Assembly (NCBI GenBank): GCA_901420285.1
Contig: CABDVE010000001.1
Span: 1,736,001 to 1,800,000 of the forward strand
Direction of reading: 5' to 3'
Length of the DNA stretch: 64,000 nt
DNA from: Stutzerimonas stutzeri
GTDB lineage: Bacteria; Pseudomonadota; Gammaproteobacteria; Enterobacterales; Pasteurellaceae
Shown: in pieces, positions 1-57,036 of the stretch
Numbering within the stretch: position 1 is the stretch's first letter
How the letters are laid out: each line of letters starts with the position of its first letter
Position numbers and translations under genes: made by a program
Notes under the pieces: generated by a model
What the model was told of the DNA's origin: nothing
The model's database searches: none
Seen by the model: the letters and a program-made list of their open reading frames with translations, nothing else

Positions 1-1470
1 ACCGAAGGCACCGGAATTGTGGCCGTGGACTTGGTTGCCTACGCCGATTCCGATGGATTGGTTGCCGGTGACGTTGGAGGCGTTACCGATGGAGATGGAG
101 GCTTCGCCGGTGGCGTTAGCATAGAAGCCTTGGGCGATGGCGTAGTTGCCGGAGGAATTTGATACTACGCCTTGAGCGATGGAGTAATTACCAAGCGCGT
201 AAGCTGTTGCACCGATTGCAATCCCTGCTTGTGACGCCGCATAGGCGGAGTCCCCTAGCGCAAGTGAAACACGTCCCGCTGCGGATGAGCCTAAACCTAT
301 AGCGGTAGCTCGTAATGCTGTAGCACTCGCATTTAAACCCATGGCAATTGCGTATTGACCGGATGCATTGGCTTGATGTCCCATCGCCATAGATACACAT
401 CCACTTGCCCGAGTACGCAAACCGATAGCGATTGCAGCTTCATCGCTCGCGGTAGCATTTTCACCAATCGCGATAGTCTGATTAGCCGTGGAGTTGGACG
501 CATTACCAATGGCGATAGATCCAAGGCCGGTGGCATTAGCGAAAGCGCCTTGGGCGATGGAGTAATTGCCAGTGGCATTGCTGATTGCACCAATAGCCGT
601 TGCAAACAGGCCTTTTGCATTAGAAGAAGCCCCGACAGCCACTGAACCCATGCCTTTTGCGTTTGCAACCGAGCCGAATGCTGCGGCATTCTGACCTGTT
701 GCGCTTGCACCGCCTCCCACAGCTGAAGCACTATTTGCTGTCGCAGATGCAGATGAACCTATAGCAGTAGCCGATATTCCTGTCGCGTTAGCGCCGAAGC
801 CGTGGGCGATGGAATACTGGTCGGTGGCATTGGCAAAGTAGCCTTGCGCTATGCTGTGATGACCGGATGCGATGGCGTGATCACCAACTGCAAGAGATGA
901 AGTATCGCTTGCAGTCGCATTTGGACCAATTGCAATGGCATTCGCGCCCGTCGCGCCACTACCATCACGGTTGCCCGCGAAAGTGGAATTCACGCCGAAA
1001 TATTTCACGGAGTTTTTGCTGACGTTATAAAGTTGCGCACCCGTTACGGCGTCGGTGGAGTTTTCGGACACGAGGCCTTCGGCGACGCCTTGAATGCGGC
1101 GGCGTTCGTTGGCGCTGATGTTGCCGACGGAGATGACGCCGACGGTGCCTGTGCCGCTTAGGCCGGCGGTGGTGTTGCTGTCGGCCGCGGTGTAGGCGGT
1201 GTTGGAGCCTAAGAACACGGAGTTGCTCGCGGTGGTTTTGATGTCGTTACCGAGTGCAAATACGCCGGTTTGGCCTGCGGCGAGGGTGTTGTTGTTACCC
1301 ACGCTGTAGGACGCGTTGGCGTTAATCACGCTTGGATCACCGAATGCACCGGAGTTGTGTCCGTGAACTTGGTTGCCTACGCCGATACCGATGGATTGGT
1401 TGCCGGTGACGTTGGAGGCGTTACCGATGGAGATGGATTCGTGGCCAGAGGCGTTGGAGCGTAAACCTTG
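1..1470. repeat. In-frame 1338-bp offset direct repeat inside the adhesin gene
   Basis: Bases 1-100 and 1339-1438 are almost identical, and the surrounding head and neck modules correspond. The offset of 1338 bp is a multiple of three (446 codons), so recombination between copies would add or remove a whole head-neck module without breaking the frame. A second neck pair (RRIQGVAEG) is spaced 1050 bp apart, also in frame. Confidence 0.75.
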
Positions 1471-3135
1471 GGCGATGGAGTAGTTGCCGGTGGCATTAGC
1501 GACTGCACCGATTGCCACGGAAGCAGTTCCCACTGCATTGGAAACACTCCCCATGGCTAATGCCGAAATACCCTCTGCGGTGGCAAATGCACCCACAGCA
1601 ACCGTACTATCTTTTGTTGCGTTTGCGCCACGACCGAAAGCTGAAGCTATCATTCCTGTTGCATTTGCTCCATCACCTATGGCAACAGTATCTACATTTG
1701 AAGCATTAGCCCAGTGCCCCATGGCTATTGAATATTGGCCGGTTGCATTCGCATAGTAACCAACCCCCACACTCCAGAGCTCAGTTGAATTAACGTTTTG
1801 ACCGATAGCTATAGAGCCGGAATTACTTGCTTTCGAATACTGACCAATGGCCAAACCAGCCCCCCCATCTGCGCGAGCATTATCCCCAATCGCAATTGAC
1901 GATATATTCGCCGTTGTGGCATTTAGCCCGATTGCAATGGACTGACTGGAATTTGTTGATGCATTTGCACCGATGGCAATTGAATCCGCACCTACTGCAC
2001 CACTACCATCACGGTTGCCCGCTAAAACGGAATTCACGCCGAAATATTTCGAGCCTGTGGCATTTGCCATGGCGGCGTAAAGTTGGGCGCCGTTGACGGC
2101 GTCGGTGGATTGGTTGCTGATTAAGCCTTCGGCGACGCCTTGGATGCGGCGAGTATTGGTGCCTGCACCACTCACTGACACAACACCAACTACAGTACTC
2201 GATACGCTGGCATCACCTAGAGTAGTGGTGTTATTGCGCGCAGTGTATTGCGAATCAGAACCAAGGAAAACAGAGTTGCTCGTGATGTTTGTGATGTTAT
2301 TACCGAAGGCAAATACATCATTGTGGTAGGTTGTGCACCCGATCACGTTGTTGTTACCGATGGCAAAGCTATTAAAAAGCTGGGTTAAATTATTATTATA
2401 ACCCATGGCACCTGAAATGCGCGCACTGCTCAAAATGTTATTATTACCAATGGCATAGGAATGGCAAGTTTGCATCGTAAAGGTGTTATTATTCCCCAAA
2501 ATGCCAGAATCACTGGTTTGTAATGTAATATAGTTATTATCCCCTAAAAAGGTATTGTTATAACTCTGCAGGTCAACTTTAGTATTACTTCCAAAAACTC
2601 TATTTCTGTGACTCTGAGTAGCAATAGTTACGTTATCCCCAAATACATAATCATATTGCCCCATAACAACAGAAGAACTATTCCCTATAACAAATGAGTT
2701 AGTACTCCCGAAAGTAACGCTCGCCCACGTCCCTATTGCAAGGGAATAATTACCCTGTGAGGCTGCGTTATCCCCTAGCGCATAGGAATAAATTGCGCCA
2801 CCGCCACTTCCCCCAACTGAGCTGTTACCAATTGCTATAGAACCCGTACCACCGGCAAATGAACTATAGCCAATAGCGACAGCCCCCCCACTTGCTGTGG
2901 AACCCTCCGGAATGGCGGCATGGGCGGTTGAACTTAGGGCTAATAAAGTCACGGCGACGCTGCCGATTAAAGTGCCGCTGCCAAGTTTACCGAGCGGCAA
3001 TGCACCGTTTTGGCTTAGTGCCTCGTTCGATGCGGTGCTCGTGGCGGAGGCTTTTACGTGCCCGCGCGCGAGTTCGGATACGACGACCCAAGCTTGTTGG
3101 GCGGCGTTCCAGACAATTTTGTATATTTTGTTCAT
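1..3135 (-). CDS. Trimeric autotransporter adhesin (YadA/Hia-like), N-terminal part, truncated by window edge
   Basis: The reading frame is open from ATG 3133-3135 to base 1 (1045 codons) and continues off the left edge. Residues 1-30 (MNKIYKIVWNAAQQAWVVVS...) form an extended signal peptide region, followed by a hydrophobic core ending near STAHA (about residue 74). Next come dozens of 14-residue Hep_Hag head repeats of the type NATGNYSIAQG and ASSIAIG. The repeats are broken by two neck/stalk motifs, RRIQGVAEG plus NSTDAVNGAQLY, near 2070-2160 and 1040-1115. Such proteins are surface-anchored trimeric adhesins that bind host tissue; the C-terminal YadA beta-barrel anchor must lie outside the window. 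The 3' part visible here repeats an earlier module at an offset of 1338 bp. The family call is secure; which adhesin it is cannot be decided from this part. Confidence 0.93.
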   Translation of the reverse strand, partial: MNKIYKIVWNAAQQAWVVVSELARGHVKASATSTASNEALSQNGALPLGKLGSGTLIGSVAVTLLALSSTAHAAIPEGSTASGGAVAIGYSSFAGGTGSIAIGNSSVGGSGGGAIYSYALGDNAASQGNYSLAIGTWASVTFGSTNSFVIGNSSSVVMGQYDYVFGDNVTIATQSHRNRVFGSNTKVDLQSYNNTFLGDNNYITLQTSDSGILGNNNTFTMQTCHSYAIGNNNILSSARISGAMGYNNNLTQLFNSFAIGNNNVIGCTTYHNDVFAFGNNITNITSNSVFLGSDSQYTARNNTTTLGDASVSSTVVGVVSVSGAGTNTRRIQGVAEGLISNQSTDAVNGAQLYAAMANATGSKYFGVNSVLAGNRDGSGAVGADSIAIGANASTNSSQSIAIGLNATTANISSIAIGDNARADGGAGLAIGQYSKASNSGSIAIGQNVNSTELWSVGVGYYANATGQYSIAMGHWANASNVDTVAIGDGANATGMIASAFGRGANATKDSTVAVGAFATAEGISALAMGSVSNAVGTASVAIGAVANATGNYSIAQGLRSNASGHESISIGNASNVTGNQSIGIGVGNQVHGHNSGAFGDPSVINANASYSVGNNNTLAAGQTGVFALGNDIKTTASNSVFLGSNTAYTAADSNTTAGLSGTGTVGVISVGNISANERRRIQGVAEGLVSENSTDAVTGAQLYNVSKNSVKYFGVNSTFAGNRDGSGATGANAIAIGPNATASDTSSLAVGDHAIASGHHSIAQGYFANATDQYSIAHGFGANATGISATAIGSSASATANSASAVGGGASATGQNAAAFGSVANAKGMGSVAVGASSNAKGLFATAIGAISNATGNYSIAQGAFANATGLGSIAIGNASNSTANQTIAIGENATASDEAAIAIGLRTRASGCVSMAMGHQANASGQYAIAMGLNASATALRATAIGLGSSAAGRVSLALGDSAYAASQAGIAIGATAYALGNYSIAQGVVSNSSGNYAIAQGFYANATGEASISIGNASNVTGNQSIGIGVGNQVHGHNSGAFG

Positions 3136-4264: not shown

Positions 4265-4350
<86 letters not shown>

Positions 4351-9962: not shown

Positions 9963-9996
9963 AGCACCGCATTGGAGGCGCTTTCAATGCGGTGCT
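9963..9996. repeat. Inverted pair of CAATGCGGTGCT motifs
   Basis: AGCACCGCATTG (9963-9974) and CAATGCGGTGCT (9985-9996) are perfect inverses with a 10-base loop. The pairing extends outward as AACAGC/GCTGTT and is followed leftwards by TTTTG, so it can end leftward transcripts from mepS before apt. Confidence 0.85.
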
Positions 9997-19498: not shown

Positions 19499-19532
19499 AG
19501 CACCGCATTGGAGGCGCTTCCAATGCGGTGCT
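19499..19532. repeat. Inverted pair of CAATGCGGTGCT motifs
   Basis: AGCACCGCATTG (19499-19510) and CAATGCGGTGCT (19521-19532), extended by TAATAGC/GCTATTA, form a stem with an 8- to 10-base loop. It stands between divergent genes, so it is not at the 3' end of either neighbour. Confidence 0.85.
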
Positions 19533-22618: not shown

Positions 22619-23752
22619 ATGGCAAAACAAGACTACTACGAACTACTCGGCATCTCAAAAGGCGCAGACGAAAAAGAAATTAAACGCGCCTACAAAAAAC
22701 TCGCGATGAAATATCACCCCGATCGCACGCAAGGCGATAAGGAAAAGGAATCTAAATTCAAAGAAATTCAAGAAGCCTACGAAATCCTTAGTGATAAAGA
22801 AAAACGTGCGGCTTACGATCAATACGGTCACGCCGCCTTTGAACAAGGTGGTTTTGGCGGTGGATTCGGCGGCACCGATTTCGGCGATATGTTTGGCGAT
22901 ATTTTTGGTGACATTTTTGGCGGCGGACGCACTCGTCAACGTGTCGTTCGCGGTGAAGACTTACGTTATGACTTAGAAATCACTCTCGAAGAAGCTGTAA
23001 AAGGCGTTACCAAAGATATTCAAATCAATACCCTCGCACATTGCAACAACTGTGACGGAAGCGGTGCAGAGAAAGGCTCGAAAGTGGAAATCTGTCCGAC
23101 CTGTCATGGTGCCGGACGCATTCGTCGTCAACAAGGTTTCTTTGTCACCGAAGTCGCTTGCCCGACTTGCCAAGGCTCCGGCAAAAAAATCGAAAAACCG
23201 TGCCGCAGCTGTCACGGCGAAGGCCGCGTGCATAAAAAAGAAAATCTTTCCGTTAAAATTCCGGCCGGCGTGGACAGTGGCAACCAACTTCGCTTGGCCG
23301 GCAAAGGTGCTGCGGGCGAACAAGGCGCACCGGCCGGCGATTTATATGTGATAATTCACGTGAAAGATCACCATATTTTTGAACGTGACGGCAATAATCT
23401 TTATTGTGAAGTGCCGATTAGCTTCACGACTGCCGCGCTAGGCGGTGAGATTGAAGTGCCGACGTTAGACGGTAGAGTAAAACTCAAAATTCCGGCGGAA
23501 ACGCAAACCGGCAAATTATTCCGGATGCGCGGTAAAGGCGTAACGTCCGCCCGCAACGGTTACGCCGGCGATTTAATTTGTCGCATTGTGGTCGAAACAC
23601 CGGTGAATTTAAGCAAAGAACAAAAAGAATTATTGGAAAAACTGGAAGAAAGCTTGCAAGGAAAAGGCTTGAGTAAACACAGTCCTAAATCCTCCGGTTT
23701 TCTGGACGGAGTGAAAAAATTCTTTGACAATCTAGGCAAGTCAGACAAATAA
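22619..23752 (+). CDS. dnaJ: Chaperone protein DnaJ (Hsp40)
   Basis: 377 residues starting [20 protein letters not shown]. The J-domain has the HPD tripeptide in KYHPDRT, then a Gly/Phe-rich linker ([18 protein letters not shown]). Four CxxCxGxG zinc repeats follow ([32 protein letters not shown]), then the C-terminal substrate-binding domains. It delivers substrates to DnaK and stimulates its ATPase. A strong terminator follows. Confidence 0.98.
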
Positions 23753-23761
23753 GCTCACATA

Positions 23762-23790
23762 AAAAAGTCCGCATTACGCGGACTTTTTTT
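23762..23790 (+). terminator. Terminator after dnaJ
   Basis: AAAAAGTCCGC-ATTAC-GCGGACTTTTTTT, starting 10 bases after the dnaJ stop. Confidence 0.9.
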
Positions 23791-23869
23791 CTATCGGCGC
23801 TCCGCATTGCGCAAATAAGAACGCGTTCAATTTAAACGGTTGTTAAACATCGTGATAACGCCTGTTGTA

Positions 23870-24013
23870 TCCGATGCGGTGCTATTTTGAGGGTTCAATG
23901 CGGTGCTGTTTTAAGGGTTCAATGCGGTGCTATTTTGAGGGTTCAATGCGGTGCTGTTTTAAGCGTTCAATGCGGTGCTGTTTTAAGAGTTCAATGCGGT
24001 GCTATTTTGAGAG
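23870..24013. repeat. Tandem array of six 24-bp units of the CAATGCGGTGCT motif
   Basis: Units begin at 23870, 23894, 23918, 23942, 23966 and 23990, exactly 24 bases apart. Each reads TTCAATGCGGTGCT then (A/G)TTTT(G/A)AG plus two variable bases; the first unit is degenerate at its left end (TCCGATGCGGTGCT). There are no spacers, all units point the same way, and A and G variants are interleaved. It fills the gap between the convergent dnaJ and modC genes. Confidence 0.95.
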
Positions 24014-24146: not shown

Positions 24147-25202
24147 TTAAACGACTGAAATTGCTTTAATTTGCAAGTAAACCTCTTGCCCTACGGCAAA
24201 ACGTAATTCGTTTTGCGCCCATCTACTGACGCTTGCCCAGATTTTATGCCCTTCCACTAGCACCGCAATATCGATACGTCGTTCTTGCCGTTCAATTTGT
24301 ACGATTTGCCCACGCAAAATATTGCGAATACTGGTTTGCTGCGGCTTAACCAAGGTAACGGAGACATCCGAACTGTAAATACAGACGCGTACGCGTTCGC
24401 CCGCTTCCGCTTGTACTTGATTAAGCCAAAGAGCTTGATTACCGAGAGAAAGGGCGCTCATTGCGTAAGCCGGATTATGTAAATAGAGCGGCAATTCCAG
24501 CACGCTACTTTGCTCACTTTCACCTTTCCAAGGCGCAAAAATCGGGCTGTTCCAAATTTTTTCTACGCTGTCATAAGCTTTTACTTTACCGTTTTCCATT
24601 AACACCACGCGATCGGCCAAGCGCAACAATTCATCTAAGCTATGCGTGACATATAAAATCGGAATATTGATTTCTTTGGAAAGGCGTTCCAAATAGCCCA
24701 TCAATTCGCGTTTACGCGGAACATCAAGCGCTGAAAGCGGTTCGTCCATCAGCAAAATATCGGGATCCGTCAACAGCGCGCGTCCGATGGCAACCCGTTG
24801 TTTTTCACCGCCAGAAAGCGTGAGCGGATAACGTTTCAATAAATGACCGATTCCGAGTAATTCGACGATATAGTCAAAATCCGTCTGTGAGACATTATTC
24901 GCACCGTAACGCAAATTACCTTTCACCGTATAATGCGGAAACAAACGCGCGTCTTGAAACACATAACCGATTTTGCGTTGATGCGCCGGCACGTTTTGTT
25001 GCGTTTCCGTATCCACCAAAGTGCGTGTGTTTAGGCGGATAAATCCCTCGTCCGGCACAGTTAAACCGCTCACCAGATTAATCAATGAGGTTTTACCTGA
25101 ACCGGATAAGCCGAAAATCGCGGTAACGCCTTGCTCGGGAATCTGTAAATCGGTTTGCAACGCAAGTTGGCCAAGTTGTTTTTTTACATTAATTTGCAAC
25201 AT
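24147..25202 (-). CDS. modC: Molybdate ABC transporter, ATP-binding protein
   Basis: 351 residues. ABC motifs are Walker [10 protein letters not shown], signature [15 protein letters not shown] and Walker [13 protein letters not shown]. The C-terminal 70 residues form a molybdate-binding TOBE domain ([19 protein letters not shown]... [14 protein letters not shown]), as in ModC. It energises molybdate uptake with ModA and ModB. It overlaps modB by 14 bases. Confidence 0.95.
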
Positions 25203-48833: not shown

Positions 48834-48909
<76 letters not shown>

Positions 48910-48924
48910 ATTTTCACACTCAAT

Positions 48925-49000
<76 letters not shown>

Positions 49001-49119: not shown

Positions 49120-49153
49120 AGCACCGCATTGAAGCCGCCTCCAATGCGGTGCT
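49120..49153. repeat. Inverted pair of CAATGCGGTGCT motifs
   Basis: AGCACCGCATTG (49120-49131) and CAATGCGGTGCT (49142-49153), extended by AAAAT and ATT, form a hairpin between the tRNA genes and tsaE. The surrounding 300 bases (49001-49300) hold nothing else recognisable apart from the terminator. Confidence 0.9.
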
Positions 49154-56994: not shown

Positions 56995-57036
56995 AAATAG
57001 CACCGCATTGGAGGCCGTTCCAATGCGGTGCTATTT
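56995..57036. terminator. Inverted CAATGCGGTGCT motifs acting as convergent terminator of glnE and mfd
   Basis: AAATAGCACCGCATTGGA and TCCAATGCGGTGCTATTT (motif cores at 56999-57010 and 57021-57032) are perfect inverses around six bases, with A/T flanks on both sides, between two convergent genes. Confidence 0.85.

What the first reader, a model, noticed from the sequence alone, without database searches (positions are those of the whole stretch)
23870..24013. Six-unit, 24-bp periodic tandem array of the motif
Uptake-type signals are normally dispersed. Here the motif is stacked head to tail with exact 24-bp periodicity, no spacers, and two variants (A and G after the core) interleaved. The array fills the gap between convergent dnaJ and modC. 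It could be a recombination or slippage hotspot, a protein-binding array, a super-efficient uptake site, or the source from which motif copies spread.
Basis: seen in the sequence. Interest (0 to 1): 0.78.

Follow-up and report, generated by a model that had tools for sequence, protein, structure and literature searches.

The report
Tandem array of DNA-uptake signals
A bacterium of the Haemophilus family appears to have switched to a new DNA-uptake signal, and at about twenty places in its genome that signal has multiplied into 24-base tandem repeats whose length differs between two strains.

Summary
The array is real: six 24-bp units at 23870-24013 between convergent dnaJ and modC, covering 144 of the 394-bp gap. 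It is one of 26 loci with close same-strand copies in this genome, 18 of them spaced exactly 24 bp. The same site in the only other held genome of the species has ten units; 19 of 24 mapped array loci differ in length: a minisatellite family.

The motif CAATGCGGTGCT looks like a third dialect of the Pasteurellaceae uptake signal sequence (USS). ATGCGGTGCT occurs 1091 and 1102 times in the two genomes, 0-20 times in each of 138 other family genomes, while Hin-USS fell to 357 and 334 against 1270-1816 in 13 congeners. Single copies carry a weak third segment, consensus TTC[A/G], repeating the 5' tetramer 24 bp on, so 24 bp is the shortest repeat in which neighbouring units overlap as complete signals. 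Spacers are alike within loci (0.82), not between (0.49): arrays grew locally and are not the source of dispersed copies. Uptake function and the cause of the period are inferred.

The parts
23870..23893 (+). unit 1, TCCGATGCGGTGCT + ATTTTGAGGG (5'-most unit; TCCG instead of TTCA)
23894..23917 (+). unit 2, TTCAATGCGGTGCT + GTTTTAAGGG
23918..23941 (+). unit 3, TTCAATGCGGTGCT + ATTTTGAGGG
23942..23965 (+). unit 4, TTCAATGCGGTGCT + GTTTTAAGCG
23966..23989 (+). unit 5, TTCAATGCGGTGCT + GTTTTAAGAG
23990..24013 (+). unit 6, TTCAATGCGGTGCT + ATTTTGAGAG; followed by ATCG, which keeps C and G at the segment-3 positions +22 and +23
22619..23752 (+). dnaJ, upstream convergent neighbour
   Evidence: ORF; PDB match DnaJ
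23761..23790 (+). hairpin and T run just after dnaJ, its likely own terminator, separate from the array
   Evidence: sequence; fold (-19.3 kcal/mol for 23753-23800)
24147..25202 (-). modC-like ABC ATPase gene, downstream convergent neighbour (name recalled from sequence likeness)
   Evidence: ORF
9963..9996 (.). inverted pair of the motif at 24-bp offset, hairpin with 4-nt loop (terminator-like)
19499..19532 (.). inverted pair of the motif at 24-bp offset, hairpin
49120..49153 (.). inverted pair of the motif at 24-bp offset, hairpin
56999..57032 (.). inverted pair of the motif at 24-bp offset, hairpin

Best explanation
The array is a minisatellite made of a new dialect of the Pasteurellaceae DNA uptake signal sequence. 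In this species the ancestral Hin-type USS (AAGTGCGGT) has decayed and a new motif, consensus TTCAATGCGGTGCT-RWTT-(6)-TTC[A/G], has accumulated about 1,100 times, as expected if the uptake receptor changed preference. The motif's 5' end (TTCA) and its weak third segment (consensus TTC[A/G]) are nearly the same tetramer 24 bp apart, so a 24-bp tandem duplication gives overlapping complete motifs, the third segment of one unit being the 5' end of the next. Single copies were duplicated locally, and units are gained and lost by slippage or unequal recombination. SHOWN: the array, motif enrichment, Hin-USS decline, the positional consensus, locus-specific spacers, length variation between two genomes. 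INFERRED: that the motif is read by the uptake receptor, that the overlap of segment 3 with the 5' end sets the 24-bp period, and the duplication mechanism.
For: Motif counts 1091/1102 in two genomes, 0-20 in each of 138 others. Hin-USS 357/334 versus 1270-1816 in 13 congeners; relic Hin-USS still carry the Hin AT segments (66 singles). In alignable DNA, 60 Hin-USS of sister G119 became 13 kept, 1 new-type, 46 neither. Clean single copies keep C at +22 (66% of 59; 76% of 50) and A/G at +23 (about 89%; 84%) in the two genomes, and +20 is the commonest offset for TTC[A/G] (9 of 59, next 5; 8 of 50, next 4). 18 of 26 loci are spaced exactly 24 bp. The 27-, 32- and 36-bp arrays hold C at +22 inside the unit and a 12-bp array satisfies it by its own repeat (my reading). 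Lengths differ at 19 of 24 mapped loci. Spacer identity 0.82 within loci (last spacer left out), 0.49 between. Upstream flanks and last spacers resemble their own array's spacers more than other arrays' (22 and 1 of 10000 shuffles reach it). comNOPQ and comEC/rec2 are open.
Against: No uptake or binding data. The third segment is weak: the whole tetramer TTC[A/G] stands at +20 in only 9 of 59 and 8 of 50 clean singles, and weak core-like bases follow (T at +25 35% and 48%, G at +26 42% and 48%), so part of the signal could come from decayed former units. A C-[A/G] after the last unit is no commoner in arrays (12 of 19; full TTC[A/G] 5 of 19, two of these paralogous; my count) than in clean singles (35 of 59, 33 of 50), so slippage on this echo as the birth event is not demonstrated. 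The last spacer resembles the internal ones less (0.55) than these resemble each other (0.82), which a simple duplication of core plus following spacer does not predict. G102, a Hin-USS species of another genus, has a 24-bp array without the TTC element. Arrays of 15- and 16-bp period exist. ComN, the proposed receptor, is not singled out: divergence ratio 1.65 against comO 1.94, comP 1.70, recC 1.47, comQ 1.31.
Confidence: 0.7

Rival explanations
1. The 24-bp phase is functional: arrays are selected or driven as multivalent uptake sites, the receptor (or neighbouring receptors) reading overlapping units, so fragments with arrays are taken up and recombined more often.
For: Exact 24-bp spacing at 18 of 26 loci although spacers differ between loci; C at +22 kept in arrays of 27, 32 and 36 bp; inverted pairs also favour the 24-bp offset, 22 of 32.
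Against: In H. influenzae USS pairs within 100 bp give no more uptake than single USS (PMC7811141 section 19). The 13 congeners have only 0-3 Hin-USS pairs each. Decayed units are tolerated inside arrays.
Confidence: 0.2
2. A purely mutational minisatellite: any abundant 10- to 14-bp repeat gives tandem duplications by slippage or unequal crossing over; 24 bp reflects chance founder events and copying of a few arrays between loci. (Overlaps in part with the best explanation; the odds given are not exclusive.)
For: Length variation and a higher-order block. Several loci share RTTTTRAGNG spacers, and the window array matches another array of the same genome at 92% over 138 bp.
Against: Mean spacer identity between loci is 0.49 against 0.82 within, so one dispersed founder array does not explain 24 bp at all loci. 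Congeners with more Hin-USS (1270-1816) lack such arrays.
Confidence: 0.3
4. Array as source of motif copies, or an assembly artefact.
Against: Two assemblies agree on array sites but not on lengths; 17 of 18 alignable dispersed copies face no Hin-USS and no copy of the motif in the sister genome.
Confidence: 0.03

Closest known systems
Hin-type USS (Haemophilus influenzae, AAGTGCGGT with two AT-rich segments)
   Same: GCGGT core, T-rich second segment at a like distance, a third segment about two turns downstream, density of several hundred per Mb, use in inverted-pair hairpins.
   Different: Core flanks CAAT...GCT instead of AAGT...CAA; segment 3 is a weak TTC[A/G], not a T run; tandem arrays; inverted pairs mostly at 24 bp (22 of 32), whereas in sister G119 the commonest offset is -17 (6 of 22).
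Apl-type USS (Actinobacillus pleuropneumoniae, ACAAGCGGT)
   Same: A second dialect with the GCGG core; shows that dialects diverge (PMC1626085, part of the abstract and passages seen).
   Different: Not this motif: 0 copies in the window, 6 in 464 kb of G000.
DUS dialects of Neisseriaceae
   Same: Several related uptake-motif dialects in one family; eight are counted in a passage of PMC12616744.
   Different: Unrelated sequence; the words tandem, array and minisatellite do not occur in PMC2397512.
Bacterial minisatellites (VNTR; recalled)
   Same: Length change between strains, a higher-order block, unit variants.
   Different: Many loci share one functional-looking core and one period while spacers differ between loci.
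Hin-USS array in G102 (unnamed, another genus)
   Same: About ten mostly 24-bp head-to-tail units at a contig end.
   Different: Hin-type core, no TTC segment; one such array among the pairs counted in that genome.

Membership tests
Pasteurellaceae uptake signal sequence (general kind) | Hundreds to thousands of copies, far above chance | tested here: met
   1091 and 1102 copies; reversed-pattern control 5 and 6
Pasteurellaceae uptake signal sequence (general kind) | Inner core GCGG | tested here: met
   Motif ATGCGGTGCT
Pasteurellaceae uptake signal sequence (general kind) | Two AT-rich segments 3' of the core | tested here: inconclusive
   Segment 2 (WTT) present; segment 3 lies at a like offset but is weak and reads TTC[A/G]
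Pasteurellaceae uptake signal sequence (general kind) | Copies arise by point mutation, not insertion | tested here: inconclusive
   17 of 18 alignable copies lie at sites of sister G119 without a Hin-USS; 15 of the 18 alignments shown are ungapped. Only these 18 copies could be tested, and arrays are an exception
Pasteurellaceae uptake signal sequence (general kind) | Preferential uptake of DNA bearing the motif | not testable with these tools
   Needs uptake assays
Pasteurellaceae uptake signal sequence (general kind) | Competence genes intact in the genome | tested here: inconclusive
   comNOPQ and comEC/rec2 open in both genomes; other competence genes not checked
Hin-type USS | Dominant 9-mer AAGTGCGGT | tested here: not met
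   357 copies against 1091 of the new motif; still above chance, as relics
Apl-type USS | Dominant 9-mer ACAAGCGGT | tested here: not met
   0 in window, 6 in 464 kb of G000
Minisatellite / VNTR | Tandem units with number varying between strains | tested here: met
   6 versus 10 units at the window locus; 19 of 24 mapped loci differ in length; two genomes only
USS receptor ComN coevolution | ComN unusually divergent in the species with the new dialect | tested here: inconclusive
   ComN ratio 1.65: above recC 1.47 and comQ 1.31, below comO 1.94 and comP 1.70. Changes at sites invariant in 12 congeners: comN 9/94, comO 25/134, comP 15/93, comQ 4/47, recC 48/646; all five exceed the highest one-species-out control, as a long branch would give

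The most novel reading that the evidence does not exclude
A single lineage inside a Hin-USS genus has replaced its uptake specificity with a third dialect whose end elements overlap at 24 bp, and this overlap creates self-extending, receptor-readable uptake arrays and fixed-offset inverted pairs: uptake signals that multiply by tandem amplification, not only by point mutation, with arrays favoured through biased uptake.
Probability: 0.2. Interest if true: 0.87.

Novelty: new variant of a known kind. Interest (0 to 1): 0.73.

Why it matters
Two USS dialects are described for Pasteurellaceae; a 2025 study (PMC12616744 section 8) found all 150 genomes enriched in one or the other, from 31 to 913 copies per Mb. 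This species, with about 185 relic Hin-USS per Mb, would pass that test as Hin-type, so counts of the two known motifs alone can miss a third. A species that switched dialect within one genus, with relics of the old signal still readable, gives a close contrast for identifying the USS receptor and for watching uptake specificity evolve. The arrays suggest a second route, tandem amplification, by which uptake signals increase, and offer variable-repeat markers. The ComN result is a mild caution: in this lineage comO and comP changed at least as much.

Tried and rejected
Echo-driven slippage as the birth mechanism: attractive, but the echo after the last unit is no commoner in arrays (12 of 19, my count) than in clean singles (35 of 59, 33 of 50), so it stays an inference. 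Frame constraint as the cause of 24 bp (a multiple of three): not general, since 19 of 28 arrays are not wholly inside an ORF of 100 aa or more (my reading). ComN as the switched receptor: not singled out. Dispersed founder array: not general by spacer identities, though some loci share RTTTTRAGNG spacers. Hin-USS pairs in genera g11 and g40 (15-65 per genome): about what their USS density gives by a rough hand estimate, not made in a call. Phage collection: 6 records, only the dnaJ end of the query. Species name: not found; the 3.3-kb second contig matches 11 Haemophilus plasmid records. Folding of the array itself (-37.1 kcal/mol on +, -7.0 on -) had no shuffle control and is not used. Register slip: the 1214966 array was cut one base out of frame; one search uses the right frame. 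Paper searches: 30 of 54 listed; 20 of 23; 30 of 517; 20 of 26; 12 of 12; 9 of 9; in these listings I saw no report of this motif as a USS or of USS tandem arrays. The library lacks most subscription journals.

Full report
What is there. Window 23870-24013 holds six 24-bp units in the gap between convergent dnaJ (ends 23752) and modC (24147 onward). Each unit is TTCAATGCGGTGCT plus ten variable bases (RTTTTRAGNG); the first unit begins TCCG. The array takes 144 of 394 bp; a hairpin with a T run, likely dnaJ's own terminator, precedes it. TGCGGTGCT occurs 48 times in the window, 0.39 expected; AAGTGCGGT, the Hin-USS, 10 times, 0.52 expected; ACAAGCGGT, the Apl-USS, 0 times.

A third USS dialect. 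Across 140 family genomes, ATGCGGTGCT occurs 1091 times in the window's genome (G000), 1102 times in the other genome of the same species (G129) and 0-20 times in each of the other 138, including 13 of the same genus. AAGTGCGGT is reduced to 357 and 334 copies in these two against 1270-1816 in the 13 congeners. Position tables from a 464-kb sample of G000 (20 stretches of 20 kb, 18 chosen around arrays and 2 not, plus the window; 293 copies, of which 195 had no same-strand copy within 60 bp) give [TC][TC]CAATGCGGTGCT[AGC]WTT and a weaker TTC[A/G] at +20 to +23. After dropping every copy with a motif-like sequence (up to 3 of 10 mismatches, either strand) within 60 bp, 59 of 293 copies in G000 and 50 of 249 in a 400-kb sample of G129 remain. 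C at +22 (66%, 76%) and A/G at +23 (about 89%, 84%) persist. The whole tetramer TTC[A/G] at +20 is in only 9 of 59 and 8 of 50, though no other offset from +10 to +59 has more than 5 and 4; T at +25 (35%, 48%) and G at +26 (42%, 48%) are weakly kept, and little beyond. So there is a third element at this offset, but a share of decayed former units cannot be excluded. Hin-USS of the sister genome G119 (240 singles) have AT segments at +10 to +15 and +21 to +27, and the relic Hin-USS of G000 (66 singles) keep these. Where G000 and G119 samples align (85.5 kb of alignment), 18 new-type copies face 17 sites without a Hin-USS and 1 Hin-USS; 60 G119 Hin-USS face 13 Hin-USS, 1 new-type and 46 neither. 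This is what a change of receptor preference would leave: decay of the old signal and rise of the new one, mostly elsewhere. Helsem et al. 2025 (PMC12616744; outline with abstract, passages and section 8 read) describe two dialects and 150 genomes all enriched in one or the other; Redfield 2006 (PMC1626085; passages with part of the abstract read) showed by uptake experiments that the two types are distinct.

The arrays. In G000, 66 same-strand pairs of ATGCGGTGCT lie at start-to-start distances of 10-40 bp, none for the reversed control; I group them into 26 loci, of which 18 are spaced 24 bp, two 12 bp, two 32 bp and one each 15, 27, 33 and 37 bp. Taking the 31 spacings as equally likely, 18 or more of 26 at a given one has probability about 2e-21, though three of the 18 (399703, 1150893, 1151694) lie in what look like two paralogous genes and are not independent. 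G129 has 74 pairs with the same preference, plus a 36-bp array. Congeners have 0-3 Hin-USS pairs of any spacing. The one comparable case seen is G102, in another genus, with about ten mostly 24-bp units of a Hin-USS at a contig end.

Variation. The orthologous dnaJ-modC array in G129 has ten units, with a 96-bp block repeated and some decayed cores. Of 29 array rows in the G000 sample, 21 mapped by both flanks to one G129 stretch; two pointed to the same target from paralogous genes and were dropped, leaving 19, of which 14 differ in length and 5 do not (one of these by 1 bp). One search added five loci (two unmapped before, three first seen in G129), all differing: 19 of 24. The added five lean towards difference, since three were picked up because G129 has an array there. 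Not all differences are whole units (13 bp at 1584748; 548 bp with other changes at 785158). Left unresolved: the 951292 array (two rows), 1057606, 1743967, and the paralogous set 399693/1150889 with 1120978/1880476 of G129. At 1082379 and 1365799 of G129 and 254966 of G000 one genome has repeated copies and the other a single copy.

Local origin and period. Spacer identity is 0.82 within loci (169 pairs, last spacer of each array left out) and 0.49 between (1911 pairs) for 19 arrays. The ten bases upstream of an array and its last spacer resemble that array's own spacers more than others' (0.41 versus 0.32, 22 of 10000 shuffles; 0.55 versus 0.44, 1 of 10000), as local tandem duplication predicts. 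By my reading, 10 of 28 arrays have a + ORF on the left and a - ORF on the right, and 19 of 28 are not wholly inside an ORF of 100 aa or more, so reading frame does not explain 24 bp in general. The period fits the motif's anatomy: the 5' TTCA and the consensus TTC[A/G] of segment 3 are 24 bp apart, so at a 24-bp period each unit's segment 3 is the next unit's 5' end. A 12-bp period also satisfies it, and the 27-, 32- and 36-bp arrays carry C at +22 inside the unit (A/G at +23 in the first two); the 33-bp pair is off by one and the 15- and 16-bp ones do not fit. Whether this acts through slippage at the short repeats or through selection for complete motifs is open: the C-[A/G] echo after the last unit is present in 12 of 19 arrays (my count), no more than in clean singles (35 of 59, 33 of 50), and the last spacer is less like the internal ones (0.55) than they are like each other (0.82).

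Function. comN, comO, comP and comQ form open frames upstream of recC in both genomes and comEC/rec2 is open, so competence is plausible; other competence genes were not checked. ComN, the receptor proposed in PMC12616744, has a divergence ratio of 1.65 in this species, between recC (1.47) and comQ (1.31) below and comO (1.94) and comP (1.70) above (G124 lacked the com genes at a contig end). Opposite-strand pairs of the motif within 60 bp: 22 of 32 in 524 kb of G000 have the same 24-bp offset, and the four in the window fold into hairpins of -25 to -35 kcal/mol, like the USS-pair terminators reported for H. influenzae (PMC7811141 section 19). In G119 offsets are more scattered, the commonest being -17 (6 of 22). 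The same section reports that two USS within 100 bp do not detectably raise uptake, which speaks against a super-efficient uptake site. The array is therefore most simply an unstable, near-neutral by-product of a very abundant motif whose ends overlap, in a species with a new uptake dialect.

Limits. No uptake or binding experiment; only two genomes of the species; G000 sampled at about 28% and G129 at about 24%, with array regions over-represented; species name not established, although the small second contig matches plasmids of H. influenzae (10 records) and H. parainfluenzae (1 record). That the family is Pasteurellaceae is recalled from gene and USS likeness, and the names modC and com are recalled too; DnaJ, recC and comEC/rec2 come from calls.

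Noticed in passing
window 4265-4350: Perfect GTGC tetranucleotide tract, 21.5 copies, about 1.1 kb upstream of a long repetitive ORF (1-3135, minus strand, runs off the window) that looks like a trimeric autotransporter (recalled); a candidate phase-variable tract.
   Followed up: partly
window 9963, 19499, 49120, 56999 and the G000 sample: Inverted pairs of the motif favour a 24-bp offset (22 of 32), forming 34-bp near-palindromes; in sister G119 offsets are scattered, commonest -17 (6 of 22).
   Followed up: partly
G080 (genus g22): Hin-USS count 205 against 1276-1481 in ten congeners: another lineage that may have lost or changed its uptake signal.
   Followed up: no
G102:C7:1-260 (L178): 24-bp tandem array of Hin-USS at a contig end in another genus.
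   Followed up: partly
G000:C1:951292-951447; G129:C1:1387857-1388048: 12-bp arrays, (CAATGCGGTGCT)n and (CGATGCGGTGCT)n, at different loci. The G129 one has about 16 copies against three at its G000 orthologue (879687); the G129 counterpart of the G000 one was not resolved.
   Followed up: partly
G000 against congeners: G000 has higher G+C than the G119 sample (44.4% against 40.8%) and a smaller genome (1.93 Mb) than all 13 congeners (2.0-2.7 Mb).
   Followed up: no
comO and comP next to recC (L109, L110): comO shows the largest excess divergence of the five genes compared (25 of 134 sites invariant in 12 congeners changed), more than comN (9 of 94).
   Followed up: partly
window 48834-49000: Two tandem tRNA-Gly(gcc) genes 91 bp apart.
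   Followed up: no
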